39,264 nucleotides of DNA, from positions 1-39,264 of the forward strand of contig JAAXKQ010000026.1 in assembly GCA_025612245.1 (NCBI GenBank). Direction: 5' to 3'. Numbering within the stretch: the stretch's first letter is position 1; the number at the start of each line of letters is the position of its first letter. The DNA is from Ignavibacteria bacterium (GTDB lineage: Bacteria; Bacteroidota; Ignavibacteria; Ignavibacteriales; SURF-24). The notes beneath the pieces are model-generated. The model was not told the DNA's origin. It saw nothing but the letters and a program-made list of their open reading frames with translations, and ran no database searches. This document shows positions 3,801-39,264 of the stretch, in pieces. Made by a program: the position numbers and the translations under genes.

Positions 3801-3976
3801 TCAAGGCCAATATCCATCAGGACCAGCTGAGGTTTGGCTTCCAGTATCTTTTTTACGCCGTCTTCAGCATTGGAGGCTATGCCACAGACTGAGTAGCCGA
3901 GACTTTCCAGGCTGTATTTCAGATCAAGTGCAACTATGCTTTCGTCTTCAACAATAAAGATGCTTGCTTTTGCCAT
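866..3976 (-). CDS. Receiver-PAS-GAF sensor histidine kinase
   Basis: A 1036-residue soluble signalling protein with no membrane segment. Domains in order: an N-terminal CheY-like receiver (residues 1-120, acidic pocket E10/D11, phospho-acceptor D55 in LVLMDIG, conserved K in YVLKPF); about four PAS/PAC units (residues 130-640, each ending in a form of VFRDITERK); a GAF-like segment (about 645-790); a HisKA dimerisation domain with H817 in SHEIRTP; and a HATPase_c domain with N box QNLIDNAIKYT, G1 DTGIGI, F box FSPF and G2 GNGLGLAL. All catalytic boxes are intact. With the receiver at the N terminus, it can plausibly accept phosphate from another kinase. The best candidate is the HisKA_2 kinase encoded directly upstream with a 116-bp gap. 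The signal is unknown; the PAS/GAF set suggests several small-molecule or redox inputs. Confidence 0.9.
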   Translation of the reverse strand: MAKASIFIVEDESIVALDLKYSLESLGYSVCGIASNAEDGVKKILEAKPQLVLMDIGLEGSTDGITAAADIKSALDIPLIYLTANSDEATLNRAKVTDPFGYVLKPFDERELQTTIEMALYKYESEIKLKANERWFSTTLKSIGDAVITTDLTGRVTFMNVIAEELTGFCISEASGKPLEEIFHIFNENTLEIVEHPVAKVIREGGIVGLANHTVLKSKDGREIPIDDSASPIKDEKGATTGVVLVFRDIKERKIAENKLRQSEENARNMIELSPFGILVHSGGKVLFCNSAAVDLLGASGREDIIGEPLFRFMHPDYYDFSRQRGKYMMETGHNAPLSEEKIVRLDGKEIDVEVGAGFFLYEGKPAIQTVIRDNTERKRGQRAIALSEEKYRTTFENTGSSIIIIEENGIISLANSEFCRMSGYSKQEVEGKLDWTEFIHAEDIRRVKSYWKQRLANPASAPHTYEYRFKDRYGNEKFMINNAAVIEGTRKVVVGMLDITERKNAEEELQKSEILFRLVWENSADGMRLSDKYGNVKMVNESFCRMVGLSRSSIEGKLISVMYHEEVRGETLAGYLERVNTRTIVPHFIQETKLWNGKTLWFDVSHSELLLNGQDPLILSVFRDITERKRSEEGLSKLNDCMLSFGADAIENINRLVALCGEQLSATSALYNRLDGDSLCKIGQWNLFPGYCTEKDFAEGRICYDVIRGDKNKTWVIENLDETNYADTDPSVARFGLKTYIGKQVSCDGKPAGSLCVVYRDIYTPSQDDLKLLGIAASAIAVEEKRKRAEEELILAKEAAERADQLKSDFLAQMSHEIRTPINTILSFTSLLRAELENKLPEDMSQVFKIIDSGGRRLTRTIDMILSMSQLQSGNYEMTPRKLNLRADILDSLYREFQNQAKLKDLEFILYADSSPDEVITGDPYSLTQLFQNLIDNAIKYTKEGKVEISIVDGNPGITSVIIKDTGIGISEDYLPRIFSPFSQEETGYTRRFEGNGLGLALVKKYADLNNAGIHVESKKGAGTKVTVTLTRDAE

Positions 3977-4092
3977 AAAAGGCAGACTCCTACGGAAAAA
4001 TTAGTGAATAGCCGTGTCATATCTTCTTCTTTTCTCAACCTAAGCCACCTTTGTCACGAGTCATTCAACAGATCACTTTCAAGAACCTGATC

Positions 4093-5802
4093 CTAAGATT
4101 TTTTCACCGGAAATATAATAATAAATTCAGTTATAACATCGGTCTTTAACTGAAAACTTCCTTTTAGTTGTGAAGCCAGAATACTGACCAGCTGAAGGCC
4201 AAGAGTTTTGGGATTAATGAGGTCAACTTCATCCAGCGGAAATTCTGTTCCGTTATTATAAACCGTAAGTTTATTGTTCTCCCCATCTGAGGAAAAGAGT
4301 ATCCCGATTTCACCGGAGCTCCTGTCCTTAAAGGCATATTTCAGCGCGTTTGTCACCAGTTCATTGAGTATCAGGCCGCACGGAATTGCCGAGTCGACCC
4401 CAAGTGAAACATCCTCCGGAACATCTATCTTTAGCGAAATAGCGTTATAATTTGTGTGGTACGACTTAAAGAGATTATTTACGAGGCTTCTTACATATTC
4501 TCCAAATCTGATGCTGGAAAGATCCCCCGACTGATAGAGCTTTTCATGAATCAGGGCCATGGATTTTACACGGTTCTGACTGTTGCGGAACATATCAAGC
4601 GCCATTTCGTCCTTTATAAATCCCGACTGCAGGTTTAACAGGCTTGAGATAACCTGCAGGTTGTTCTTAACCCTGTGGTGGATTTCCTTCAGAAGTATCT
4701 CCTTTTCCCTCAAGGAAGTTCTTATCCTGTCTTCGGAAGTCTTGCGGCTTGTAATGTCTCGGATTATTGAAAGCAGGATTATCTCTCCCTGGAGCTCAAG
4801 CTTATGGAGGTTTACGTCGGCATAGGTCTTTTCTCCTTCAGGACCGATAAACTGGCTTTCAAAATGCTGAGGCTCGTTGTTAAGCGCCTTTTCAAAGTGC
4901 TCATAAACGTTTGTTCCAGGTATCATTCTGTCTGAATGAAGAAATTCCGAAATTTCCACGCCCGGCGATTTCAATTTTTTTATTCCCAAGAGCCGGGCTG
5001 CCTTCTTGTTGGCTTCCAGGAGGCGCCCGTCTTTAATCAGGACAATCCCGTCACTTGCCTCATCAAAAATGGACCTGTATTTAACCTCGCTATCCATTAG
5101 CTCGCTTCTCTGTTTTTCCAGCTTGTCGATCATTCTGTTAAAGGAATTTATGAGCCTTCCTATCTCGTCTTCCGACCTTCCTTTCAGCTTCAGCATGTAG
5201 TTACCTTCCGAAATCTCCTCCATTCTGCGGCTAAGCTCCCCTATGGGCCTTCCGATGACCCGTCTTAAGGTAAAGAAAACCGAAACAATGATTACAAGGG
5301 CAATGACTAGTGTCTGAAGAATTATCCTCATAATTATGTTTTGTATCTCATTTTGGACTGCCTCTTCAGAAAAGTAGACCTCCACAAAGCCGATGGTGTC
5401 TTCACCGCGCCTGATTTTATCCTTCATTACGTTAATATAATCCCTTGCGGGAAGCCTTCGAATTCCTTTTTCGGAAATGCTGTCGAATGCAGCATTTCCA
5501 TTGCGGGCTACAGCCTCAAAGACCTCCCCGTCTTCCTTTCTGACAATAATTGCCACAATGTCTTTGTTAGTTTCATCAAAGGATATTATGCGCCTAGTTG
5601 AAAGCTCATCATAGGACCACACCGGCTCGACCAGGCTGTTTTCCAGCCTCTTAAACCTTAACTCCTGCATTATTTTTGTTTCGTTTATCAGCTTGTCTCT
5701 TTCAAACAGATAAGTATAGCGGCCAAAAATGCAGAGGAATAAAACCACGCTGAATGTAACAATAAGAATAGTTTTAAACAGTATTGAATTTTTAAATTTC
5801 AT
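4093..5802 (-). CDS. Membrane sensor histidine kinase, HAMP-PAS-HisKA_2
   Basis: About 569 residues from the ATG at 5802. A TTG 15 bp further out is possible but has no ribosome site. One hydrophobic segment near the N terminus (about residues 8-24) and a second around 155-180 flank a periplasmic sensor of about 130 residues. Then come a HAMP linker (about 180-235), one PAS domain (about 240-355), and a HisKA_2 domain with the family motif IHHRVKNNLQ (H375/H376). The ATPase domain has N box LNELVTNALKYAF and a short G box TLGLQLV. HisKA_2 kinases often phosphorylate atypical receivers. The neighbour downstream carries an N-terminal receiver, and the neighbour upstream encodes a periplasmic binding-type protein, so a sensing chain is plausible but inferred. 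Confidence 0.88.
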   Translation of the reverse strand: MKFKNSILFKTILIVTFSVVLFLCIFGRYTYLFERDKLINETKIMQELRFKRLENSLVEPVWSYDELSTRRIISFDETNKDIVAIIVRKEDGEVFEAVARNGNAAFDSISEKGIRRLPARDYINVMKDKIRRGEDTIGFVEVYFSEEAVQNEIQNIIMRIILQTLVIALVIIVSVFFTLRRVIGRPIGELSRRMEEISEGNYMLKLKGRSEDEIGRLINSFNRMIDKLEKQRSELMDSEVKYRSIFDEASDGIVLIKDGRLLEANKKAARLLGIKKLKSPGVEISEFLHSDRMIPGTNVYEHFEKALNNEPQHFESQFIGPEGEKTYADVNLHKLELQGEIILLSIIRDITSRKTSEDRIRTSLREKEILLKEIHHRVKNNLQVISSLLNLQSGFIKDEMALDMFRNSQNRVKSMALIHEKLYQSGDLSSIRFGEYVRSLVNNLFKSYHTNYNAISLKIDVPEDVSLGVDSAIPCGLILNELVTNALKYAFKDRSSGEIGILFSSDGENNKLTVYNNGTEFPLDEVDLINPKTLGLQLVSILASQLKGSFQLKTDVITEFIIIFPVKKS

Positions 5803-5876
5803 GGAGTAGGACGGCAAATTTTAATGATTTAGTAGTTAGTTACGGAATTTCACTGCATTTTCTTAAGAGGCAGAAT

Positions 5877-7142
5877 TCAGGTATTAACTATTCCGTATTT
5901 TTTCAAAATTTTCTTATATTTTTCGGTTTTTTTGAATTTTGCAAGCATTACCGAAAACTCTTCAGAGAGTTTTTTCTGGCCGCTTTTCCTGGAAAAAGCC
6001 ACGTAAAGGGGTTCCTGGCTGACATAAGGCCTTAAGAGGGAAAGCCTGCCATTGCCATTTTTCATGAGATGTTTTAGTACCGGTTCGGCCATAATTCCCA
6101 CGTCAACACGTCCGGTTTCAACCAGCCTGATCAGGGATTCGTTAAACGGCACCTCCTCTTTCCTCAGGTATCCGGCGTGATCAAACTTTTCACCATAGCT
6201 TGTGCTGGATTTTACCCCGATAACATATTTCTTCAGCTTCTTTAAGTCCCCGTCAAAAGCAAGCCTGGAGCTTTTAAGTTTGAAGAGTACGTTGGGCAAA
6301 ACTGAAGTCGGCTCCGAAGGGTAATATAGGAATTTAGTCCTGTCCTGTGTCTTAAAGATCGTCATTATGGCATCGGACCTGCCCGACTTCATCATTTCAA
6401 TACATCTTGCCCATGGATATTCCATGAAGACAGGCTGAATTCCCATGCTGGAAAAAACGGCCTGCGTAAGCTCAGCTTCAAAGCCCGAGACCTTCAGAAA
6501 GCCAACGGAAAATAGAATATCTTTGGCTTTTGACATTGCCGACCTGTCGGCTTTCCCAGAAAGGCTGTACTTCCCGGTCTTCCTGTCGGCGTGATAAACA
6601 GAAAGGAGCAAATCCCTCTTTGATTTGTCCTTTAACTTCTTTAGGACAGAATTTTTGAATATATCGCCACTAATTACACCAGGGATATTTTCTATGAAGT
6701 AGTTCGGAGGATAGTTTTCCATTACCACCGTAATTTTACGCTGTGGGTTTTGCCATGTACTACTGACTTTTTGGGGAGTTAAATTTTTCCCGGAAACAGT
6801 TTTTTTTACAGGGGATGTTTTTTTTAGGGCTTCACCCTTTTTGCCACCGGTAAGTACTTTTTTTGCAAGCGATTTCTTTGGACCTGTTTCACCCGGAGTC
6901 TTTTTCTTCTGGATTTTCTCCTTTAAGATTTTCTCTTTTTGAGAAGGTTTCCTTGTCCCCTTTTTCTCCAAAGGTTTTCTTTGAGAGTTTTTTTTCTGAA
7001 GAGTAGAGATGTTTTTCTTTGAAGTCTTAGTTTTGGACGCATTCTGCCCTGGCAGTGCGGCAGTAAATAGAAAGAGAAAGAATATTGAACAAAGGGAAAC
7101 TTTCAGGAAGAGACCTGAAAAACCGGATCTGTAACTAGTCAT
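5877..7142 (-). CDS. Periplasmic solute-binding (SBP_bac_3-like) protein with lysine-rich linker
   Basis: About 421 residues from the ATG at 7142. A GTG at 7184 would add 14 residues before an otherwise normal signal peptide. The hydrophobic export signal ends near FTAALPGQ. About 100 residues that are extremely rich in Lys, Thr and Ser follow (KKTSPVKK-type repeats). The rest matches family 3 solute-binding proteins: a first strand VVMENYPP, then SGFEAELTQAVFSSMGI, SGRSDAIMTIFKTQDRTKFL, YVIGVKSSTSYGE and GRVDVGIMAEPV. About 65 residues rich in Lys and Ser are inserted between the first strand and the GFEAEL helix, where the family normally has a short loop. No ABC permease is nearby and a membrane kinase follows at 74 bp, so a sensor role is as likely as transport. 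The ligand is unknown. Confidence 0.75.
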   Translation of the reverse strand: MTSYRSGFSGLFLKVSLCSIFFLFLFTAALPGQNASKTKTSKKNISTLQKKNSQRKPLEKKGTRKPSQKEKILKEKIQKKKTPGETGPKKSLAKKVLTGGKKGEALKKTSPVKKTVSGKNLTPQKVSSTWQNPQRKITVVMENYPPNYFIENIPGVISGDIFKNSVLKKLKDKSKRDLLLSVYHADRKTGKYSLSGKADRSAMSKAKDILFSVGFLKVSGFEAELTQAVFSSMGIQPVFMEYPWARCIEMMKSGRSDAIMTIFKTQDRTKFLYYPSEPTSVLPNVLFKLKSSRLAFDGDLKKLKKYVIGVKSSTSYGEKFDHAGYLRKEEVPFNESLIRLVETGRVDVGIMAEPVLKHLMKNGNGRLSLLRPYVSQEPLYVAFSRKSGQKKLSEEFSVMLAKFKKTEKYKKILKKYGIVNT

Positions 7143-7242
7143 CTTTATATACTCTCTCTTTTCTACTCCAGTTAAGGTATTCACCAGTTTATAATCGGAA
7201 AAAAGCGAAAAACTTTAAGCTTAAAATAATTTTTAATTTCTT

Positions 7243-7794
7243 TTATATCATGTCGCTGAGCAATTCCTGGCGGGGCTGTGCAATTACAACCTTATTTACC
7301 AGGAGCCCCTTATCGGCTGCCACTTTGGCACCGGCCTCAACAGCCGAGCTCACGGCGGCAACTTCACCGGTACAGGTAAAAAATGCCTTTCCGCCCAGAG
7401 CCATTGCAAGCCTCAGCTCAATAAGTTTTACGTTTGCAGATTTCACGGCCGCATCGGCAGCCTCAATGAGGGAGGCTACGGAGAAAGCTTCTACAATTCC
7501 GAGCGCCTCCAGCACTTCCACGCCTGTGTGCCCGGCAATGGCAGGAAAGATCTGTTCGTGGACGTTTGCAATGACAAAAGTATCAATAACTGCAAACCTG
7601 ATTGCGTCTGAGGCCGTATCCACCGCCGTCTGCACGGCAGCTACATCCCCGGCAATAAGGACCATATATTTGCCGGAACATATTGACCTGTTTAATACGA
7701 GCTCAACTTCGGAAGTCTTAAGCATTATATCTGCTGCAAGCATGCCAGCAGCAATGCTCGTCAATTCTATAAGTCCTATTGAATTCTTTTTCAT
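7243..7794 (-). CDS. pduT: Bacterial microcompartment shell protein, BMC-T class, PduT-like
   Basis: A 183-residue protein made of two BMC modules (about 1-90 and 93-180). The modules start GLIELTSIAAG and GIVEAFSVASLIEAAD, and both contain a GDVAAV/GEVAAV pore-loop element. Length and sequence layout match PduT, whose trimer carries a 4Fe-4S cluster at its central pore held by one cysteine per subunit. The equivalent cysteine is present here (Cys39, in RSICSGKY). PduT is thought to pass electrons across the shell with PduS as partner, and a PduS-like gene lies 50 bp upstream in the same operon. A GGAAG ribosome site precedes the ATG. No BMC-H, BMC-P or signature enzyme gene is in the window, so any compartment must be built from genes elsewhere. 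Assignment to the PduT type is confident; the cargo pathway is unknown. Confidence 0.9.
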   Translation of the reverse strand: MKKNSIGLIELTSIAAGMLAADIMLKTSEVELVLNRSICSGKYMVLIAGDVAAVQTAVDTASDAIRFAVIDTFVIANVHEQIFPAIAGHTGVEVLEALGIVEAFSVASLIEAADAAVKSANVKLIELRLAMALGGKAFFTCTGEVAAVSSAVEAGAKVAADKGLLVNKVVIAQPRQELLSDMI

Positions 7795-7844
7795 TTTTCT
7801 TCCCGTTTAAGAAATTTTATGTTGTCATTCAATGCAGAGGAACA

Positions 7845-9161
7845 CTATCCGGCAATTATTCTTATGCTGTCTTCTGTTATGCTGTTTACAAGGCCGTCAA
7901 TTGAGGCGTGTATGTTGGCACCCAGCTTCCCTTCCGGAACGCGGGCTATAAGCTGCCCCTTTTTGACCCTACTGCCGGTATCAACCACGGGGAGCGATTT
8001 TTCGCCCGTGTGCTGCTTTAAGTAGATTTTTACGCTCTCTGCCTTAAGGCTTTCTTTAATAAACGGTGTAGGCACATTATAATCCTGCAGGTTCAGCCTT
8101 CGTATGAGCTGCTTTACGGGAACTCTTCTTCCCTCTTTAACCGGGTGCACCTGTACGGGATGTGTCTGGACGTATTTTACTCCCTGGTTTCTCATCTCCT
8201 TTTTGGACCAGTCACACGCTTCCTTGGGATACAGATCCTCGGGACACGCATAGAGTGTACAAAGGCCGCAGGCACAGCAGAGCTCGGCATACTGGTTCCA
8301 TAGGCCGGCACCTGTTTCCGAAAAAACGAGTGACCGCATAACCTTATGCGGCTGAACGTTGTACCCAAGCAGATACCGCGGACAGAACTCGGTGCAGTAG
8401 CTGCACTGGTCGCATGCCGACTTACCGATCCTGTATCGGGATTTATCGGTTCTGTCCTTCCTTTTTACCAGGTAATGGTCCCGGGGAAGTATAATCAGTC
8501 CGGATGTAGTCTTTGTTACGGCCTGTGAAGCATCATATGTAAAAGATCCCATCATAACACCGCTTATAAATATGCAGTAATCCCTGATGGTGGTTCCTCC
8601 TGCATGCCTAATCAGGTCTTCAAAGCTTGTTCCAATGGGGGCAAAGAAAGTTGAAGGGTTTCTAACGGCACCGGAAACTGTAAGTATCTTTTCAGTAACC
8701 GGAAGGCCCTCTTCGGCGCGTGCAACGTTATAGAGTGACTCTACGTTATTTACCACGCATCCGACATTCAGCGGGATTCCCGCAGGCGGTATAAGCCTTT
8801 TTGTTGCCGAATAGACGAGCTCGTATTCATCGCCAGCCGGGTAAAAATCCCCGAGCTCGCAAATTTCAATCGGATGATCCTCAAGTGCGGCCTGAACGGC
8901 TTCAATAGCCTGTGTGTTCTTAGATTTAATACCGAAGTAGCCCAGCCTGGCTGAAGTAGAATCCATCATGAGCTGCATACCCCTTACGATCTCAGGCGCA
9001 AAGTTAATCATCAGCTCGACGTCCTTGTGCAGAAGCGGCTCACATTCGGCACCATTGGCGAGCATAAACTCCACCTTAGACTTTGCCTTAACGTGAGTCG
9101 GGAACCCTGCTCCCCCGGCGCCAACGACGCCAGCGGCTAAAATCTTTTCAGCTAAATCCAT
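7845..9161 (-). CDS. pduS: PduS-like flavin/iron-sulfur electron-transfer protein (RnfC family)
   Basis: A 438-residue protein. The N terminus has the RnfC/Nqo1-like nucleotide-flavin region with the glycine-rich GVVGAGGAGFPTHVK (11-25) and the family marker NGAECEPLL (36-44). An SLBB-type stretch follows (about 155-200). Two iron-sulfur motifs come next: C250, C253, C256 and C260, and then C295/C296, C298, C301 and C306. The C-terminal 60 residues form a barrel-sandwich hybrid segment (VDTGSRVKKGQLIA...ASIDGLV). PduS in propanediol compartments uses NADH and flavin to reduce cobalamin and binds PduT. Here it sits directly before the PduT-like gene and starts one base after the stop of the phosphatase gene, so translation is probably coupled. 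Rnf/Nqr subunits are an alternative family, but the shell-protein partner and the absence of other Rnf genes favour PduS. Confidence 0.88.
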   Translation of the reverse strand: MDLAEKILAAGVVGAGGAGFPTHVKAKSKVEFMLANGAECEPLLHKDVELMINFAPEIVRGMQLMMDSTSARLGYFGIKSKNTQAIEAVQAALEDHPIEICELGDFYPAGDEYELVYSATKRLIPPAGIPLNVGCVVNNVESLYNVARAEEGLPVTEKILTVSGAVRNPSTFFAPIGTSFEDLIRHAGGTTIRDYCIFISGVMMGSFTYDASQAVTKTTSGLIILPRDHYLVKRKDRTDKSRYRIGKSACDQCSYCTEFCPRYLLGYNVQPHKVMRSLVFSETGAGLWNQYAELCCACGLCTLYACPEDLYPKEACDWSKKEMRNQGVKYVQTHPVQVHPVKEGRRVPVKQLIRRLNLQDYNVPTPFIKESLKAESVKIYLKQHTGEKSLPVVDTGSRVKKGQLIARVPEGKLGANIHASIDGLVNSITEDSIRIIAG

Positions 9162-30446: not shown

Positions 30447-31538
30447 ATGGCTGATGGCAGACAGAACCCGGATGAAAAGAACAGGAAGAAATTTTTGATC
30501 CTGTCTATTGATGGAGGAGGAATCAGAGGGCTGATTCCAGCGACCGTACTTGTCAGGCTCGAAAGCTTAATAAGGGAAAAAAGAAAAGACAATGGAAGTA
30601 TTGGAGAGTATTTTGATCTAATTGCCGGGACAAGTACCGGTGGAATACTCGCCTGCCTTTATCTTACCCCGGAAAGCAAAGAAAACCCATGTAAAGCACG
30701 TTTTGAGGCAGCCAAAATCAGAGACTTTTACCTGGAACATGGAGAAGAAATCTTTCAACGAAGCCTCTGGCAAAGGATAACAGCGTCCGGCGGAATCCTG
30801 GACGAAAAGTATAATGCCGGGCAATTAGAAGACCATCTTAAGACGTATCTTGGGGATCTGGAATTGAAGGACCTGATGAAACCCTGCCTAATTACCGGGT
30901 ATAACGTTAGGCAATACCGCCCTATATTTTTTACCAAACAGGATGCAGATAATCCGGCCACAAACTACAAGGTAAGGGATGTTGCCAGGGCTACGGCAGC
31001 AGCACCGACGTACTTTGAAGCAGCCCTTCCGGAAAGCCTGGATAATATCAGGGATGAATTTCCAGTCATTGACGGAGGGGTTTTTGCAAACAATCCGACA
31101 GCATGCGCACTGGTAGAAGCAATTAAGAAAGGGCGTGGGAAAGTTGATGATGGGAATTTTATGGGAGTTCCATTTGAAGACATTGTAATTCTTTCACTTG
31201 GAACCGGCCGAAAGTCAACAACAATTACTTACAAAGAGTGCAAAAACTGGGGATTAATTGGCTGGGCCAGGCCTCTTGTAGGAATTATAATGGAGGGTGT
31301 TTCGCAGACTGTAGATTATCAGATGCAGAATATTTTCGAAAGTCAAAATAAGAAAGAGGATTATCTCAGAATAGATGGCGAGTTTGATGATTTCAGGAAT
31401 GGTTTAGCTGTTGATGGTCTCGATTCCTCTCTCGATTGTGCTACATATGAGAACATGCAAAAGCTTGTAACTTTTGGTGAATTGCTTACTCAGAAATTCG
31501 AAGGCGATTTGAAGAAATTTGTAAATAAGTTTTTCTAG
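30447..31538 (+). CDS. Patatin-like phospholipase
   Basis: A 363-residue cytoplasmic protein without a signal peptide. It has the patatin Ser-Asp dyad and oxyanion hole: DGGGIRG (residues 22-28), nucleophile S63 in GTSTGG, and D209 in the VIDGGVFANNP strand. Patatins are lipid acyl hydrolases that cleave membrane phospholipids. The length and order resemble stand-alone bacterial patatins, including effectors of CBASS immunity, but no nucleotidyl-transferase gene is next to it. It could be a housekeeping lipase, a self-membrane-directed effector, or a lipid-recycling enzyme. It is monocistronic, followed by a strong terminator 210 bp later. Confidence 0.9.
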   Translation: MADGRQNPDEKNRKKFLILSIDGGGIRGLIPATVLVRLESLIREKRKDNGSIGEYFDLIAGTSTGGILACLYLTPESKENPCKARFEAAKIRDFYLEHGEEIFQRSLWQRITASGGILDEKYNAGQLEDHLKTYLGDLELKDLMKPCLITGYNVRQYRPIFFTKQDADNPATNYKVRDVARATAAAPTYFEAALPESLDNIRDEFPVIDGGVFANNPTACALVEAIKKGRGKVDDGNFMGVPFEDIVILSLGTGRKSTTITYKECKNWGLIGWARPLVGIIMEGVSQTVDYQMQNIFESQNKKEDYLRIDGEFDDFRNGLAVDGLDSSLDCATYENMQKLVTFGELLTQKFEGDLKKFVNKFF

Positions 31539-31746: not shown

Positions 31747-31784
31747 AAAGCCCGGGAACAGTTTATAAGCTGTTCCCGGGCTTT
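31747..31784. terminator. Strong 15-bp terminator hairpin
   Basis: AAAGCCCGGGAACAG (31747-31761) pairs perfectly with 31770-31784 around an 8-nt loop. The plus strand has TTT then A and TT after the arm; the minus strand reads into a run of five T. It probably ends transcripts from both sides. Confidence 0.8.
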
Positions 31785-31812
31785 ATTCTTTGCTAGCGGA
31801 AAGAGTTGGATT
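31780..31812 (-). pseudogene. Fragment of a tRNA-Ser 3' end with trailer
   Basis: This stretch matches the end of the intact tRNA-Ser(GGA) and its trailer at 33381-33412: the shared text is GCTTTATTCTTT, four differing bases, then GCGGAAAGAGT. It therefore carries the last acceptor bases of the tRNA, the trailer and the start of the terminator, but no tRNA body precedes it on the minus strand. It could be a decayed tRNA copy or an attachment-site half left by an integrating element. Not functional as a tRNA. Confidence 0.55.
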
Positions 31813-31935
31813 TTCGGCACTATATCTGAATATAATGAATTCAAGCTGTTTTAAGCATTTTCAAGAAGCCAATGTCATTAAAATGACATGAATATCTTTC
31901 ATTTAATGAATGGATTTGAGAATTAAATGAACGGT

Positions 31936-33009
31936 TTATTGGACATTACTATATATCCATAGCTCGAGGGGATAAATGCCGCCTTCACCGTCGAATGCCC
32001 CGGCTGTAAAGGCAAAGTGCCTGCCCGAGGGGCTGAAGCAAGGATTTTTATTCACTATAAATCTTGCGGTAAATTTTGTAGTTCTGACATCCAGATCTTC
32101 ACTTCGTGAAGAGTATAAATCAAATAGCTCGATATGACATTGCGGAACATTGGCAGCATCACCCGGGAACCCATAGTTCAACAGTACTTTAGACGGATTT
32201 GCCGGATCTGCGGCAACCGAATTGAAAGAACCGCCCCTGTCGGCTATTACCTTTAATGTGGTATCAGTGCCGTCAATACCGAGCTGCATAAACCTTACCC
32301 TTGTGCGGGAGTTATTATCCTGACCAAAGATAAGGTATCTGTTATCCTTTGTTACTGCAAAACTTGCTGCTTCATTTGGCTTTAGGGTGATATTATAGAG
32401 AAGGTCTATGTAGCTTACTGCCCCGGTAGACCGCAGAACTGCTTTATAAAAACCGCTCAGATTGTCCTGCGGATTCGTACCGTAAAAAATGAATTCTTCG
32501 CCCGATGAAAATATGGCGACAGATCCGGGTTTCCATTCATCGCTTATCAGTTCACGGGAGGAAACAGTGCCATTTCCGTTTAACTCAATTAAAAGAATCT
32601 TTTGTAAATTGTTTTGTCTTGCTGATACAAGAAATTTACTGCTGCCGGTAATATTCTTTATATCAAAAATTCCGTCATTCTCGAAAGGATAAAAACTATA
32701 ATCCTTAAAGCTGAAATTCTGTGAATCCATATTTAATAAGAAAAAGCCTTTATGAGTCACTGCATTTGTTAACTCTGCGCTATAAAAAAATATTTGATTC
32801 TGATTTATCCAGCATGGATATAATACATCCGGGCCCTCACTTGCTCCTATATTGGGAGCTCTGGTTGCCACATCGGAGTATCCCCAGTAAAACAACTGGT
32901 GTAGTTTTGAGTTTAGCGTTATTGTTCGATCCGGAGAAGTAACATTATTATCACAACTGCTAAACATACATGCAATTAAGGCAAAGAAATAAACCACTGC
33001 ATTTTTCAT
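31936..33009 (-). CDS. Putative lipoprotein, beta-propeller-like (TolB/WD40-type) repeats
   Basis: 357 residues from the ATG at 33009, which has a GAGGGAAA site; a GTG 12 bp upstream is in frame. A lipoprotein signal ends in FSSC (Cys19), so the mature protein is membrane-anchored. The body is beta-rich with recurring blade-like strands ending in patterns such as FAVTKDNRYLIFGQDN and CFSPSGRHFAFTAGAFDG. These resemble the PD40/TolB blade motif (xxSPDGxxIAF). No catalytic motif is seen and no family is clearly recognised. It lies between the tRNA-Ser remnant and the intact tRNA-Ser(GGA) and may have arrived with the element that duplicated the tRNA end. Confidence 0.65.
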   Translation of the reverse strand: MKNAVVYFFALIACMFSSCDNNVTSPDRTITLNSKLHQLFYWGYSDVATRAPNIGASEGPDVLYPCWINQNQIFFYSAELTNAVTHKGFFLLNMDSQNFSFKDYSFYPFENDGIFDIKNITGSSKFLVSARQNNLQKILLIELNGNGTVSSRELISDEWKPGSVAIFSSGEEFIFYGTNPQDNLSGFYKAVLRSTGAVSYIDLLYNITLKPNEAASFAVTKDNRYLIFGQDNNSRTRVRFMQLGIDGTDTTLKVIADRGGSFNSVAADPANPSKVLLNYGFPGDAANVPQCHIELFDLYSSRSEDLDVRTTKFTARFIVNKNPCFSPSGRHFAFTAGAFDGEGGIYPLELWIYSNVQ

Positions 33010-33312
33010 TTTCCCTCGCACCTGTAATTCTTTCTATAATGATTTTATCAGCTGAATTTCTTAATTGCACTTTTGTGAACTTACAAATTCGGAAATAGTC
33101 TGTCAAGCAAGTACAAATACTCATTCAGGACCTCGAGTTGAGTCATAAATAATGTAACTGGGAACAGTTTTTCTTCAGTTGTACAGAGAAGCATTAAATT
33201 AGATTTACTTTCGGTTCATCAGAACTTCCATGTGGAAATTCATGTACTTCAATTGTATTATTCAAAAACATAATGTCCTAATAGTGTCATGTTGCTGGTA
33301 AAAGATGGGGTA

Positions 33313-33382
33313 TTTGGGTGAGTTAGGGAGACGCCACTATGCGAATAAAGCTCAAAAACAGCTTTTTTAGCTGCTCATGAGC
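33313..33382 (-). repeat. tRNA-Ser trailer repeat, copy A (inverted relative to copy B)
   Basis: On the minus strand, just after tRNA-Ser(GGA), the 70 bases contain a hairpin (AGCTCA...TGAGCTTTATT) followed by CGCATAGTGGCGTCTCCC and TAACTCACCCAAA. Copy B after tRNA-Ser(CGA), 34605-34674, agrees at about 62 of 70 positions by eye, including the 11-base CGCATAGTGRC. This copy includes the tRNA terminator. Confidence 0.85.
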
Positions 33383-33385
33383 TTT
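33341..33385 (-). terminator. Terminator of tRNA-Ser(GGA)
   Basis: On the minus strand the outer stem AATAAAGCTCA/TGAGCTTTATT encloses an inner AGC-rich stem. It begins 13 bases after the tRNA 3' end. The T run is interrupted (TTTATT), so termination may be partial. Confidence 0.6.
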
Positions 33386-33397
33386 ATTCTTTAGGAG

Positions 33398-33484
33398 CGG
33401 AAAGAGTGGGATTCGAACCCACGGTACGGTTGCCCGCACACACGCTTTCCAGGCGTGCCAGTTCAGCCACTCCTGCATCTTTCC
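33398..33484 (-). tRNA. tRNA-Ser, anticodon GGA
   Basis: 87 nt. The acceptor GGAAAGA pairs with TCTTTCC and discriminator G. The anticodon stem CACGC/GCGTG carries loop CTGGAAA with anticodon GGA. The long variable arm GTGCGGGCAACCGTACC is typical of serine tRNA, and the T arm is GTGGG-TTCGAAT-CCCAC. No CCA is encoded. It is oriented away from the ZIP gene, back to back with a second tRNA-Ser 1 kb to the right that has the same variable-arm sequence. Confidence 0.96.
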
Positions 33485-34508: not shown

Positions 34509-34595
34509 GGAAAGGTGGCAGAGTGGTCGAATGCGGCGGTCTCGAAAACCGTTGTGCGGGCAACCGTACCGGGAGTTCGAATCTCCCCCTTTCCG
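34509..34595 (+). tRNA. tRNA-Ser, anticodon CGA
   Basis: 87 nt. The acceptor GGAAAGG pairs with CCTTTCC and discriminator G. The anticodon stem GCGGT/ACCGT (one G-U pair) carries loop CTCGAAA with anticodon CGA. The variable arm TGTGCGGGCAACCGTACC matches the GGA isoacceptor, and the T arm is GGGAG-TTCGAAT-CTCCC. No CCA is encoded. It is followed 9 bases later by a terminator and then directly by the AT-rich SIR2-HerA island, so it is a candidate integration site. Confidence 0.96.
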
Positions 34596-34600
34596 CTTAC

Positions 34601-34642
34601 AAAAGCTCAAAGGCAGCTAAAAACGCTGTTTTTGAGCTTTTT
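34601..34642 (+). terminator. Terminator of tRNA-Ser(CGA)
   Basis: AAAAGCTCAAAGGCAG pairs with CTGTTTTTGAGCTTTT, allowing G-U and small mismatches, and ends in TTTTTT. It starts 5 bases after the tRNA. Confidence 0.8.
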
Positions 34643-34674
34643 TCGCATAGTGACGTCTCTCTAACACACCCAAA
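34605..34674 (+). repeat. tRNA-Ser trailer repeat, copy B
   Basis: These 70 bases downstream of tRNA-Ser(CGA) are nearly identical in inverted orientation to 33313-33382. The match covers the terminator, CGCATAGTGACGTCTCTC and TAACACACCCAAA. Short TTAGGACA words follow both copies (34693-34720 here, 33265-33275 there). The HerA gene ends 32 bp further right. Confidence 0.85.
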
Positions 34675-34705
34675 CTCACCCTGTTTTTCTCAAGTTAGGA
34701 CAAAT

Positions 34706-36901
34706 TTAGGACAATGATTTGGGAAATGGATTGCTAGGAATGTCCTTACTGTCATCTATGAGATTTGACATCGTATTATTTTCAGTACTCTCATTAGAAT
34801 CACTTCCATTGTAACCTTGCCATTCATCAGCAATATCTTTCCAATTGATTTTTCTATCCTCCTCATTAATCCACACTTTCCAAAACTGAGCATCGTTTGA
34901 CATAGGTCGGTCTTGTTTTGATAATTCTCTCATCTCTACTAGAATAGGGATAGGTGTTGCCCAACCAAGAAGAATTGCCTTTCTGGTTGGCAGAATTGGC
35001 AGTTCATTTAATAAAGCCCCAATATTATCTGGAACAAGTCTCCTTATAAGATCCTGATCACGGTCATTTACAATTCTATGGAGCAAAAAAGTGTTACATT
35101 GGGAAAGAACTGTTGATGAAAGTTCAGATGGTCTTTGTGAAGATAGAAGTAGGCTTAAACCAAATTTTCTCCCTTCTCTAGCAATCCTTTCAAACGTTTC
35201 TCTGCAAAGCTGTGAGTAAGTAGTTTCATTAAATCTGTTCTCTCTTATAAAAGTATGAGCTTCTTCTAGTACTAAGACAGTTGGAAGCTCAGCTCCAACT
35301 TTTCGTTTATAGCGTTGTACTGCTTCAAAAACAACTCTGGAAATAACTGAAATTAAAATATGAATGATGTCAGCTGGGACAAGCGATAAATCAATAATGC
35401 TTATGTATCCATTATCAGCACTATTTCCACCGATTATCATTTCTAACCATTCTGCAAAATCTATTTTCAGTTCGTCCACAATAACTGATTTAGCACGCTC
35501 GTCTCGCATCAAATATTTAATTCTGAGGTTCAGAGAGTTTACAAACTGCGACAAATCCCTGCCTGAGGTTTCAGTAGAAGCATAATTGTCCAGAAAATCA
35601 GGAAGATCTAATACATCGAAATATCTAGGTGTATCAGGAGAAACCAGATTAGAATTATCTTCAAATGAAGGTAGTACTTCTAAAACATTTTTGATTCGAG
35701 TTAAGATACTTAATAGTTCAACCTCCCTAAAATCTGAGTATCGGATTGTGTTATTATTATTACTATAAGTCCTATCATGTACTTCTTTACATTTTTCAGC
35801 AAGTAGATTTAACTTTTTAATCACTTCTTCATCGAATACCTGCTTCTTATTTGGGATATAGAGGTGTCTTAAATCATAATCTAAGGTACCAATTTTTTTA
35901 CCGCACTCCTGTACTTCGCCATAAGACATATTTGGGTTTGATGACCAAAGTTCAAAATTTAGTTTCCTCGCAGTCAGAAGTTTTACTAATCTGGCCAAAG
36001 GTTGTGGTGAATACTGAACCCCTGATTTGATAAATCTTAAAGTATCAAGTAACAATGGTCTTTGAACTCCAGGAGAAGCCTGAGAAAAAGTAATCCATTC
36101 ATCACTGTTCCACATCCATGCGGGGACCTTAAGTTGCGTAGCACTTTCTCCATCAGATGATGAAACATTCACAACCTTGAATAATCTAACAGGTTTACCC
36201 AGTTCATTAAAACAATTGCAGTATTCTCCGTTTGGGTCAAGAACAATAAATCTAGCGTTTATTGAATCATTATTACTTTTACATGAGTTTTTTGCAGCTT
36301 GAATGGACCACCTAATTAAGCCTGCTACTGAACAGGATTTACCACTTCCCGTGTTACCTAAAACGGCAAAATGTCTTCCAAATAACTTGTCTGGATTAAT
36401 TCTAACTTCCGCATTGTTTGCAATTGGAGCTTTCCCAATAATTATAGCTGCATTTTCATCACGATTCTCAACAATTGAATTTAGTTGCTCGTCTGTTGGC
36501 AAGACAACAATATCCCCTACCGAGGGGAAAGAATATATTCCTCTCTCTAGTGTATATTTTTCAAATCCCTTTTTACCAGTAAACTTTAAGGTTCCGATAG
36601 GAACCAGACATAATTTCCTTAATGGGAAAGGCAGATCAATTAAATCGAAATCCTTGTATCCCTTTCTTTTTGGATACGGAGAATGTTCTACTCCTATCCA
36701 ATTTACCATTCCAACAATCCCCCCAACTTCGTTTGGGATCATTAAATAACTATTAATTTTAGGAAAGGAGCGTGGGGTACCTGTATTTATAGAGGTATTT
36801 TGAGGAGCATCAACATCTAGCAAAATCCGAATCTCATTAGAAGATACTGAATTTACAGTGCCAATTGAAAGGCTTCTGAAATTGTCAAAATCAGTGTTCA
36901 T
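34706..36901 (-). CDS. herA: HerA-type hexameric ATPase of a SIR2-HerA defence system
   Basis: A 731-residue protein. An N-terminal HAS-barrel region (about 1-150) leads to a FtsK/HerA RecA-like core with Walker A GNTGSGKS (182-189), an intervening helical insertion (about 290-440), Walker B VLVLEEAHTF, and the RKFGLSLLLSSQRPSELS and NTFLLHRIVNDRDQD segments. HerA proteins form hexameric rings that translocate DNA with NurA. In defence loci they assemble with SIR2 proteins instead and boost NAD hydrolysis and DNA processing. The start ATG overlaps the SIR2 stop by 11 bp, so the two are translationally coupled. No nurA gene is present. Base composition is clearly more AT-rich than neighbouring core genes, suggesting acquisition. 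Confidence 0.9.
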   Translation of the reverse strand: MNTDFDNFRSLSIGTVNSVSSNEIRILLDVDAPQNTSINTGTPRSFPKINSYLMIPNEVGGIVGMVNWIGVEHSPYPKRKGYKDFDLIDLPFPLRKLCLVPIGTLKFTGKKGFEKYTLERGIYSFPSVGDIVVLPTDEQLNSIVENRDENAAIIIGKAPIANNAEVRINPDKLFGRHFAVLGNTGSGKSCSVAGLIRWSIQAAKNSCKSNNDSINARFIVLDPNGEYCNCFNELGKPVRLFKVVNVSSSDGESATQLKVPAWMWNSDEWITFSQASPGVQRPLLLDTLRFIKSGVQYSPQPLARLVKLLTARKLNFELWSSNPNMSYGEVQECGKKIGTLDYDLRHLYIPNKKQVFDEEVIKKLNLLAEKCKEVHDRTYSNNNNTIRYSDFREVELLSILTRIKNVLEVLPSFEDNSNLVSPDTPRYFDVLDLPDFLDNYASTETSGRDLSQFVNSLNLRIKYLMRDERAKSVIVDELKIDFAEWLEMIIGGNSADNGYISIIDLSLVPADIIHILISVISRVVFEAVQRYKRKVGAELPTVLVLEEAHTFIRENRFNETTYSQLCRETFERIAREGRKFGLSLLLSSQRPSELSSTVLSQCNTFLLHRIVNDRDQDLIRRLVPDNIGALLNELPILPTRKAILLGWATPIPILVEMRELSKQDRPMSNDAQFWKVWINEEDRKINWKDIADEWQGYNGSDSNESTENNTMSNLIDDSKDIPSNPFPKSLS

Positions 36902-38246
36902 TTACTTGGGGTGTATTATTGTTTATTAATTTGTCTTCTGGTTCTCTTCCAAATTTAATTCTTATTGCCTTTTCAGTAATACGATCTATTGCTGGCTTAG
37001 GTAAGTAGTACTCCGTAAGGTTTTCAATAGCTCCTAAATGGTCACCTATTAAAAGGGTAATTTGCGAGGGATTACTTTCAAAGAATTTTCTTATTCTGTC
37101 TCGAATTGGACTAACTCCATTTTCAGATATTTTATCATATGCAATAATAACTACGTGAGTAGATGGAATTGTTAACATATCATTAATTATCTGGTTAATA
37201 TGACTATCTCCAAATCCATAGCCATATGTTACTAATGTCGAGTTAGGCTTGCAGATAGCAGCTGAAAAATCTCTAAAAAGTTCCGAATAAGGATAAAAAG
37301 CAGTCTCAATAGCTTTTGAGGAATTCGGATATATTACAGCACATTCAGATAATCTTTTTATAATAGGATGATTTTCATCTGCACCAAATGGAAGTAACTC
37401 TTTAATGATATTGTGATTTTCAAAACGCCAATCAATCGACCCATGTATTTTAGTAAAGCGAACTACCCCTTCAACATACCTTGGCTCCCCTCTTATCCCA
37501 GGAGGATTGTAGTGGTAATCTAGTTCTAATCTAGTATTTCGCATGATTGGGTATAATGTTCCTCTAAATCTATCTAAGGATAATATACCAGCTTCATCGT
37601 TAGCAAATTCAATAAATCTATCATAGTTTGTCGTAAAGATATTCAATCTATCTCTTGAAGCTACTCTGCTTGCAAAACTCGAAAAGAAGGATTTCAAAAT
37701 CTCAAGTGCTTTAATCCCCTTCTGATGTAGTTCCAACTCATCTGAAAATAAGTTATTTACGAAGCATCTCTCAGTATAGATAATGGATTTAATTAAATCC
37801 TCAAGAATTGTATCAATGTTACTTTTAAGAATTTTTGCTTTGTCATTTTTTTGAAGTACATTTAATCCATTTAACAATAAATTAGCTGTTCGTAGATCAT
37901 CTTCAAAATTTGCCTCACCTCTATCCATTGTTTTTGCTGTTTTATCCGCATACTCTCTTATTTTGTCCTTATCAATCTCGAATTCGGGCCGCTTATATTC
38001 AGGAGGCTTTACACCAGCTATTTGGCTTATTCCTAAAGTTAAACCATTCCCTACTAGTAAAGACAGATGTTCGCTTTGAAAGATAGCTGACAACCAAGGT
38101 TCAATTTCCTGTCGCAGTTTTAAGTAAGCATTCACTTCTGGTTCTGCAGTATTTTCACTATCCGAGCATAAAAACTCAGGAAGAAAATCATCAAAAGATC
38201 TTTCTTTATTACCAATTTTTGAAAGATGTTTTTTCGTCCAATCCAT
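36891..38246 (-). CDS. SIR2-family NADase-like defence protein, partner of HerA
   Basis: A 451-residue protein with the divergent SIR2 Rossmann fold found in prokaryotic immunity. Landmarks are LLVGNGLTLG (63-72, NAD-binding glycine loop), FTTNYDRFIE (204-213, with the conserved N207 and D209), KIHGSIDW (266-273, with catalytic H268) and VTYGYGFGDSHIN (339-351). The zinc-finger cysteines of deacetylase sirtuins are absent, as expected for NAD-hydrolysing defence SIR2s. A helical region (about 75-190) is inserted after the glycine loop. The family is known to deplete NAD+ on phage infection when complexed with HerA, and the order SIR2 then HerA with overlapping ends matches that system. Activity here is predicted, not shown. 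Confidence 0.9.
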   Translation of the reverse strand: MDWTKKHLSKIGNKERSFDDFLPEFLCSDSENTAEPEVNAYLKLRQEIEPWLSAIFQSEHLSLLVGNGLTLGISQIAGVKPPEYKRPEFEIDKDKIREYADKTAKTMDRGEANFEDDLRTANLLLNGLNVLQKNDKAKILKSNIDTILEDLIKSIIYTERCFVNNLFSDELELHQKGIKALEILKSFFSSFASRVASRDRLNIFTTNYDRFIEFANDEAGILSLDRFRGTLYPIMRNTRLELDYHYNPPGIRGEPRYVEGVVRFTKIHGSIDWRFENHNIIKELLPFGADENHPIIKRLSECAVIYPNSSKAIETAFYPYSELFRDFSAAICKPNSTLVTYGYGFGDSHINQIINDMLTIPSTHVVIIAYDKISENGVSPIRDRIRKFFESNPSQITLLIGDHLGAIENLTEYYLPKPAIDRITEKAIRIKFGREPEDKLINNNTPQVNEH

Positions 38247-38570: not shown

Positions 38571-38588
38571 TTACGATTGGCCTTTCTT
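38555..38588 (-). terminator. Terminator at the integrase 3' end
   Basis: AAGAAAGGCCA (38555-38565) pairs perfectly with TGGCCTTTCTT (38578-38588). The stem overlaps the last six codons and stop of the minus-strand recombinase. It is followed on that strand by TTTATAATTG, a short T run. Confidence 0.65.
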
Positions 38589-39188
38589 ATCGAGGTCTAT
38601 CAGATTATCCAAGTGGGTTACTTTGTCGTGCAGCTGATCGGGCTTATGATGGGCGTATATTTCTGTTTCTGTAATTGAGCTGTGGCCCAGAAGTTTCTTT
38701 ATATCCTCAAGGCGCTCCCCTCTCTGCACCAGTATCGTTGCATATGTGTGACGGAACTTATGAAGAAAGGCATTTGAACTGATCTTCGCCTTTCCCGCAA
38801 CAGCTTTGCAAATTGAAAGCGCTTTCCTTTCCTTGATCTGTGTCCCGCTCTTGGTTGTAAAAACCAGATCTGTCTTTCTATTTGGTTCAAGCTGCTTAAG
38901 AAGCTTGTAAAGGTCCTTTGTCATTGGGATAGCTCTTTCGGAGTTTGATGTCTTGGTCTTGAAACTTTCGGTAGATCTGACATGGAGCAACCGCCGCTGG
39001 AAGTCCACATCAGCCCAGGTAAGATTAGCTAATTCAGCAAACCTCATCCCTGTCTGCAACAGGCCAAAGAAAAAGTTTCTGTATCCCTCAGGCATCGGCT
39101 GTGAGAAAAACCTCTTCAGTTCTTCATCCGTGTAATATTCAGGTTTTTTCTTTTCGACCTTCAGACTCTTTAGATGAATTACGGGTGA
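38571..39188 (-). pseudogene. Tyrosine recombinase, catalytic domain only (N terminus missing)
   Basis: The frame is open from 39188 to 38571, but a stop at 39189-39191 removes the N-terminal core-binding domain that should precede the conserved linker KVEKKKPEYYTDEELKRFF. The catalytic domain is complete. Numbering from the internal Met at 39095, it has R18 (TGMRFAEL), a beta-hairpin lysine region (KTKTSNSER), H112 and R115 (LHKFRHTYAT), H138 (LLGHSSI) and Tyr147 (TETEIYAHH). It resembles XerD/phage-type integrases of about 300 residues. It is either a remnant of the element that brought the SIR2-HerA genes, or a gene whose 5' half was displaced by the repeats at 39196-39264. A start at 39095 would give an incomplete protein. 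Confidence 0.75.
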
Positions 39189-39195
39189 TTAATGT

Positions 39196-39264
39196 CAATT
39201 ATAATTACCGGTTAACGACAATTATTTTTACCGGTTAGATTCTCTTCAACGACAATTATAATTG
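39196..39264. repeat. Short tandem repeats at the window edge, upstream of the recombinase
   Basis: CAATTAT recurs at 39196, 39219 and 39253. The first two copies continue TTACCGGTTA after two variable bases (period 23 bp), and ACGA precedes the second and third copies. The window ends inside the third copy. These look like recombinase or regulator binding sites, or the edge of a repeat array, and are not coding. Confidence 0.65.

What the first reader, a model, noticed from the sequence alone, without database searches (positions are those of the whole stretch)
34706..38246. SIR2-HerA anti-phage system next to a tRNA-Ser
The overlapping SIR2 then HerA genes, the sirtuin motifs without zinc cysteines, and the HerA Walker motifs match the known two-gene SIR2-HerA immunity system, which depletes NAD+ on infection. 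The system itself is described; what stands out is its place directly downstream of tRNA-Ser(CGA), its AT-rich composition, and a recombinase remnant at the other side. This looks like a mobile defence island in an Ignavibacteria-like genome.
Basis: partly seen in the sequence, partly recalled or inferred. Interest (0 to 1): 0.7.

Follow-up and report, generated by a model that had tools for sequence, protein, structure and literature searches.

The report
SIR2-HerA defence pair in tRNA-Ser element
This is an intact-looking member of a known two-gene bacterial antiviral system (SIR2-HerA) that was brought into the chromosome by a small mobile element inserted at a serine tRNA gene, whose own insertion enzyme now seems to be broken.

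Summary
Window 36891-38246 (-) encodes a 451-aa SIR2-like protein and 34706-36901 (-) a 731-aa HerA ATPase, overlapping by 11 bases. They belong to the known SIR2-HerA (Nezha) antiphage family by PADLOC profiles (532 and 902 bits), by fold, by invariant catalytic residues (SIR2 N207, H268; HerA K188, E547), and by gene pairing (HerA directly downstream in 77 of 80 relatives, the other three cut by contig ends). The likely mechanism is abortive NAD+ depletion, by homology only.

The place is also explained. A 31-bp exact copy of the tRNA-Ser(CGA) 3' end lies on contig C44, which overlaps this contig's end. An exact paired TTAGGACA repeat occurs in the own genome only inside the two ends of the element. 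A same-genus genome has the same flanks with different cargo and no HerA match. So this is a tRNA-Ser integrative element of about 6.3 kb. Only the catalytic half of its integrase remains, beside an IS21-family remnant, so it is probably no longer self-mobile. It is one defence system, not a multi-system island. The system is a new member of a known kind; the tRNA-Ser hotspot is the more interesting part.

The parts
36891..38246 (-). SIR2-like NADase subunit, 451 aa, first gene of the pair
34706..36901 (-). HerA-family ATPase subunit, 731 aa, second gene, 11-base overlap with SIR2
34509..34596 (+). tRNA-Ser(CGA), integration target
34582..34612 (.). attL core: 31 bp identical to contig C44:2687-2717, made of the tRNA 3' end and the bases that follow it
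34600..34643 (+). terminator-like hairpin now behind the tRNA, read as element-borne; the version like that of the sister genome is at C44:2687-2745
   Evidence: comparison by eye; not found by the consensus scan
34695..34713 (.). paired TTAGGACA repeats inside the left end, arm-site-like; the HerA stop codon lies in the second copy; matched at C44:1528-1546
38571..39188 (-). tyrosine recombinase remnant (catalytic half); about 160 N-terminal residues missing
39189..39264 (.). end of an IS21-family remnant; the last 55 bases are identical to C44:1-55, and an IstB fragment follows at C44:167-340 (-)
33397..33484 (-). tRNA-Ser(GGA), second target of the same element family
31757..33389 (.). small unit at tRNA-Ser(GGA) with family-type ends, no integrase ORF seen, one 361-aa ORF (31936-33021, -) with no Pfam match

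Best explanation
A two-gene SIR2-HerA antiphage system. By homology, HerA forms a hexameric ATPase ring that binds and licenses a SIR2 oligomer; on phage infection the SIR2 active site (N207, H268) hydrolyses NAD+ and the infected cell stops supporting phage growth. The genes are the cargo of a tyrosine-recombinase element that inserted into the 3' end of tRNA-Ser(CGA), rebuilding the tRNA end and bringing its own terminator. The integrase was later cut, apparently by an IS21-family element, leaving the cargo fixed. Shown here: gene identity, residues, pairing, predicted folds, att repeat, element ends, other cargo at the same locus in a sister genome. Inferred: complex formation, trigger, NAD+ loss, phage protection, loss of mobility.
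For: PADLOC HerA PDLC04098 902 bits and SIR2 PDLC04079 532 bits. The SIR2 chains of solved SIR2-HerA entries are its best sequence matches, and the fold search of its model ranks SIR2-HerA chains first; in the second look ranks 1-9 have Z 23.3-27.0, rank 10 is also a SIR2/HerA chain (17.8), then ThsA at 16.3. The HerA model's rank 1 is a chain of a SIR2/HerA complex. N207 and H268 in 66 of 66 aligned SIR2s; K188 and E547 in 56 of 56 HerAs. HerA directly downstream in 77 of 80 loci. In V. cholerae SIR2 active-site residues N168 and H227, and herA, are needed for defence (PMC11559045, passages). Mobility: 31-bp att repeat against a chance longest of about 11; exact paired repeat only inside the two ends in the own genome; sister genome with the same flanks and other cargo; related integrase beside tRNA-Ser(GCT) in G001.
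Against: No biochemistry. NCBIfam equivalog cut-offs for the antiphage SIR2 and HerA are far from met (124 of 500; 237 of 850 and 184 of 800), so this is not the subfamily those models describe, and mechanism is carried over at low identity. Predicted models are good but not excellent (pLDDT 82.4 and 78.9), with weak stretches at SIR2 234-242, 308-317 and 439-451; the top HerA fold match has rmsd 16.3 and TM 0.55. The integrase remnant does not share the low G+C of the pair. The element spans two contigs joined only by a 55-base overlap at an IS end. No empty site was seen, and the two G001 contigs that hold the flanks were not shown to be adjacent.
Confidence: 0.9

Rival explanations
1. Same genes, other main weapon: the complex acts mainly as a HerA-driven DNA-processing or nuclease machine and NAD+ hydrolysis is secondary.
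For: Nuclease, helicase and ATPase activities are reported for the E. coli complex (PMC12198126 and PMC11559045, passages). The HerA ATPase motifs are kept.
Against: The SIR2 active-site pair is invariant in 66 of 66 aligned sequences, and point mutation of the active site abolished defence in V. cholerae (PMC11559045, passages). Pfam finds no nuclease domain in either protein.
Confidence: 0.12
2. A vertically inherited chromosomal pair that merely lies beside a tRNA gene.
For: The ORFs are intact and nothing in the neighbourhood looked like a phage structural gene by eye.
Against: att repeat, element-end motifs, low G+C of the pair and the sister-genome comparison; HerA at E <= 1e-20 in none of the four other genomes of the family searched, one of them only 88% complete.
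Confidence: 0.02
3. The element is still mobile, with the integrase supplied in trans by a relative elsewhere in the cell.
For: The left att core and paired repeats are present; four other integrase relatives exist in the genome; family-type units without an integrase exist (31757-33389), and the fetched stretches of the sister hotspot show no match to this integrase.
Against: The other integrases in the genome are only 28-41% identical over the matched part, and the nearest has a stop inside; the right att at C44:1601-1661 is degraded.
Confidence: 0.15

Closest known systems
SIR2-HerA (Nezha) antiphage system of E. coli (PDB 8j4u, 8sub, 8uae) and V. cholerae
   Same: SIR2 and HerA genes together; same fold; same N/H pair by alignment with 8j4u; HerA Walker motifs present
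   Different: Low sequence similarity (about 22% in the structural alignment of SIR2); HerA is longer (731 against 610 residues); NCBIfam equivalog cut-offs not met
SIR2/HerA complex with PsSIR2 (PDB 8w9l, 8wld)
   Same: Its HerA (696-residue chain) is closer in length and ranks first by fold for the HerA model
   Different: Its SIR2 is shorter (381 residues) and a weaker sequence match
HerA-DUF4297 system (PDB 9c1m, 8ziq, 8zir)
   Same: Same HerA fold; best HerA sequence match in the PDB is 9c1m
   Different: The partner here is a SIR2, not DUF4297
Integrase-only defence-carrying islands at integration hotspots of E. coli (PMC10121019, passages)
   Same: Integrase without other known mobility genes, variable cargo between strains; 18 of that paper's 41 hotspots are tRNA loci
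   Different: Different phylum; here tandem elements with recognisable shared ends and a broken integrase
Tycheposons (only a search listing seen; the rest recalled)
   Same: tRNA-associated small elements with variable cargo (recalled)
   Different: Not tested here; no homology was looked for

Membership tests
SIR2-HerA antiphage system | SIR2-like domain with the catalytic Asn and His | tested here: met
   Pfam SIR2_2 2.7e-09; N207 and H268 in 66 of 66; aligned with 8j4u
SIR2-HerA antiphage system | HerA ATPase with Walker A and Walker B | tested here: met
   Pfam DUF87 1.9e-20; GNTGSGKS 182 and LVLEEAH 543; fold rank 1 is a chain of a SIR2/HerA complex
SIR2-HerA antiphage system | The two genes adjacent, same strand | tested here: met
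   11-base overlap; 77 of 80 relatives, three misses cut by contig ends
SIR2-HerA antiphage system | Match to curated defence profiles | tested here: met
   PADLOC 902 and 532 bits
SIR2-HerA antiphage system | 12:6 complex, infection-triggered NAD+ loss, phage protection | not testable with these tools
   needs expression and assay
NCBIfam equivalogs SIR2_antiphage NF042942 and HerA_antiphage NF042943/NF042944 | Score above curated cut-off | tested here: not met
   124 of 500; 184 of 800; 237 of 850; so not filed under these equivalogs
tRNA-integrated genomic island | Direct repeat of the tRNA 3' end at the far side | tested here: met
   31 bp exact, C44:2687-2717; a shorter, degraded copy at C44:1632-1661; rests on C23 and C44 being adjacent
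tRNA-integrated genomic island | Own integrase | tested here: inconclusive
   only the catalytic half remains
tRNA-integrated genomic island | Different content at the same site in relatives | tested here: met
   G001: left flank 99.3% over 1,249 columns, right flank 88.4% over 3,471, on two contigs with other cargo
tRNA-integrated genomic island | Excision | not testable with these tools
   needs PCR or deep sequencing
Tycheposon | family-specific integrase and module set | not tested
   only a literature listing

The most novel reading that the evidence does not exclude
The neighbouring tRNA-Ser genes of this genus are docking sites for a family of small elements with shared ends (paired TTAGGACA-like repeats, then an aaatgcccaaaacagcctgaattc-like stretch, then the tRNA 3' end). 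They stack in tandem and swap cargo: SIR2-HerA here; chromate-transport and other genes in the sister genome; a single unknown protein at tRNA-Ser(GGA). Some members carry one gene and no integrase and would be moved in trans, so that antiphage defence is traded as one interchangeable cassette among others.
Probability: 0.3. Interest if true: 0.5.

Novelty: new member of a known kind. Interest (0 to 1): 0.3.

Why it matters
It places a known NAD+-depleting defence system in a clear mobile context and explains how it arrived. The shared element ends give a sequence handle for finding further elements of this family, and their cargo, at tRNA-Ser genes of this group. The defence system itself adds a SIR2-HerA branch far in sequence from the solved examples, useful for testing which contacts of the complex are general.

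Tried and rejected
Rejected: a vertically inherited pair (sister-locus comparison). Rejected: tRNA association as a trait of SIR2-HerA in general; 7 of 80 relatives have a predicted tRNA in the fetched stretch, at least two of these inside the SIR2 or HerA match (L117, L122), and 2 of 80 have a match to the window integrase. Rejected as main carrier: phages; 3 phage records matched, all weakly, and of 20 viral-contig loci 4 matched at 45-50% and 16 at 23-31%, while 315 plasmid records matched, all under 60% identity. Led nowhere: promoter and terminator consensus scan, at chance level (16 against 15.8 and 3 against 3.1 in shuffles); single-sequence scan of genome contigs, 34 pattern hits but no relative. 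Literature on Ignavibacteria with tRNA-Ser islands or SIR2: none of the 8 papers listed of 74 and of the 8 listed of 73 held the word Ignavibacteria; the unlisted papers were not seen, so this is no proof of absence. Not settled: whether C44:747-1595 (two ORFs, no Pfam match) belongs to the cargo. A short stretch after tRNA-Ser(CGA) in G002 that I took by eye for an integrase start is not backed: the full-length G001 integrase has no match in that locus at E <= 1.

Rows dropped: 76 of 80 loci gave a full-length SIR2 ORF and 64 of 80 a full-length HerA ORF by my length filter. Of the 76 I aligned 65 plus the window (A3), of the 64 I aligned 55 plus the window (A4); the 11 and 9 left out were chosen by eye as redundant, without a test. 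The tree used all 76, the window and 5 rows from the genome search.
Full report
WHAT IS THERE. One search gives two complete ORFs on the minus strand, SIR2 36891-38246 (451 aa) and HerA 34706-36901 (731 aa), overlapping by 11 bases. tRNA-Ser(CGA) lies at 34509-34596 on the plus strand and tRNA-Ser(GGA) at 33397-33484 on the minus strand (both also found by Rfam). The pair is AT-rich: G+C 0.334 and 0.360 against 0.440 for window 1-34580; the recombinase remnant is not (0.445). The space between SIR2 and that remnant holds no ORF over 48 aa.

IDENTITY. Pfam: DUF87 (HerA central domain) 1.9e-20 and SIR2_2 2.7e-09. PADLOC: 902 bits for HerA and 532 bits for SIR2. Among solved structures the three SIR2 matches at E below 1e-7 are chains named SIR2-like or SIR2 family (8j4u, 8yhx, 8w9l); a profile of ten relatives finds the same three. 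The fold searches show that 8j4u and 8w9l belong to SIR2-HerA work, while 8yhx is titled 'trimeric HerA'. HerA matches antiphage HerAs of both the DUF4297 and the SIR2 kind. NCBIfam equivalog cut-offs for the antiphage SIR2 and HerA are not met, so this is a divergent branch.

RESIDUES AND FOLD. The SIR2 has TTNYD at 205 and KIHGS at 266, four scattered cysteines and no CxxC. N207 and H268 are present in 66 of 66 aligned sequences; HerA K188, E547 and R590 in 56 of 56. In V. [quoted passage not shown] that these are the same positions as N207 and H268 is my reading of the motifs, not a direct alignment. AlphaFold2 models have mean pLDDT 82.4 (SIR2) and 78.9 (HerA). The SIR2 model ranks SIR2-HerA entries first; in the second look ranks 1-9 have Z 23.3-27.0, rank 10, also a SIR2/HerA chain, 17.8, and ThsA 16.3. 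The HerA model ranks a chain of a SIR2/HerA complex first, with TM 0.55 and a large whole-chain rmsd (16.3), and HerAs of the DUF4297 kind close behind.

DISTRIBUTION. Of 395 genomes of the phylum, 10 have this SIR2 at E <= 1e-30, the own genome included; each of the nine others has an ORF that I read as HerA directly after it (by eye). A profile scan of genome contigs found 332 pattern matches, of which 263 encode a relative; the best 80 were kept. HerA (over 80 bits) follows on the same strand in 77 of 80; the other three have 5, 15 and 333 bases left on the contig, the last with a 47-bit HerA match. The tree of 82 rows puts the window SIR2 in a well-supported set of 36 rows from eight named groups (17 Bacteroidota, 8 Bacillota and others); the groups together need 23 changes, the least possible being 10. 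This fits repeated transfer, but the tool warns that more than one change is no proof.

THE ELEMENT. The window is the whole of contig C23; its last 55 bases equal C44:1-55. C44:2687-2717 repeats 31 bases of the tRNA-Ser(CGA) 3' end exactly (window 34582-34612); chance would give about 11. The copy at C44:2687-2745 continues into a hairpin like that which follows the tRNA in sister genome G001, whereas the one now behind the tRNA in the window differs (by eye). The exact pattern TTAGGACA-NN-TTTAGGACA occurs twice in the 4.84-Mb own genome, at window 34695-34713 and C44:1528-1546; one more is in G001 and none in the other 19 of 21 genomes. A degraded att copy follows at C44:1601-1661. So the SIR2-HerA element runs from 34582 to about C44:1661, about 6.3 kb by arithmetic if C23 and C44 are adjacent, and a second small unit fills C44:1661-2745. 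The HerA stop codon lies in the second TTAGGACA of the left end.

THE SISTER LOCUS. In G001, of the same genus, the block from tRNA-Ser(GGA) to tRNA-Ser(CGA) is 99.3% identical (L048:1-1246), and the right flank C44:2957-6423 is 88.4% identical at L049:7633-11097. On these two contigs, not shown to be adjacent, the inner parts hold a DUF5916 protein, ChrB, two chromate-transporter ORFs and other genes, plus further att-like ends. Only element ends are shared with the window's element; SIR2, HerA and the integrase fragment have no match in the fetched stretches, and HerA has none at E <= 1e-20 in the whole of G001. The same search found none in G002-G004 (G003 is 88% complete) and matches in 15 of 59 genomes, the own one included. 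The fetched G003 and G004 contigs held tRNA-Ser(GGA) but not tRNA-Ser(CGA). No empty site was seen.

THE INTEGRASE. The fragment is the catalytic half of a tyrosine recombinase. A full-length relative in G001 (60% identical over 197 columns) aligns from its residue 161 on, at window 39188; upstream lies an IS21-family end, with an IstB fragment on C44 (2.1e-14). No match to the missing N-terminal part was found in the first 34 kb of C44. The G001 relative lies about 270 bases from tRNA-Ser(GCT), which supports tRNA-Ser as target. It has no match in the fetched stretches of the G001 hotspot or of the G002 locus, so the elements seen there either lost theirs or used another.

A FAMILY OF ELEMENTS. 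Six right ends (three in the own genome, three in G001) align along about 100 bases: repeats, a stretch near aaatgcccaaaacagcctgaattc, then the tRNA end. They were picked because they matched; in the own genome two (C44:2601-2760 and the tRNA-Ser(GGA) one) have diverged repeats, and in G001 the one at L049:7351-7540 has a diverged tRNA end. The tRNA-Ser(GGA) one belongs to a 1.6-kb unit, 31757-33389, with a single 361-aa ORF and no integrase ORF seen; that protein has no match in the four other genomes of the family searched. A search of 21 genomes with one right end found matches in these two genomes only.

MECHANISM. Most likely: infection activates a HerA-bound SIR2 oligomer, which hydrolyses NAD+ and aborts infection. 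This is inference from homologues. The trigger is unknown; a review lists the activation as unclear (PMC12198126, passages).

VERDICT. The system is a new, divergent member of a known kind. The tRNA-Ser element context is well supported and ordinary in kind; integrase-only defence-carrying islands at integration hotspots are described in E. coli (PMC10121019, passages). The integrase-free cassette reading is the boldest one left open.

Noticed in passing
window 31757-33389: A 1.6-kb unit at tRNA-Ser(GGA) with ends like those of the SIR2-HerA element, a single 361-aa ORF without Pfam match, and no integrase ORF seen.
   Followed up: partly
window 30447-31538: Patatin-like phospholipase (Pfam 1.4e-25) matching PADLOC profiles named Effector, Phospholipase (232 bits); that these are CBASS effectors is recalled. 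No cyclase gene was recognised by eye among the neighbouring ORFs.
   Followed up: no
L048 (G001:C70) 3641-6909: ChrB and two chromate-transporter ORFs at the same tRNA-Ser(CGA) hotspot in the sister genome.
   Followed up: partly
L031 (C44) 747-1595: Two ORFs between the IS21 remnant and the right end of the element, no Pfam match; possibly cargo or a split gene.
   Followed up: no
L177 (G001:C1) 7230-8669: Full-length relative of the broken integrase about 270 bases from tRNA-Ser(GCT), perhaps part of an intact element of the same family.
   Followed up: partly
L054, L056, L057: ORFs beside SIR2-HerA in relatives look like modification methylase or YhcG-type nuclease genes by eye; not tested.
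   Followed up: no
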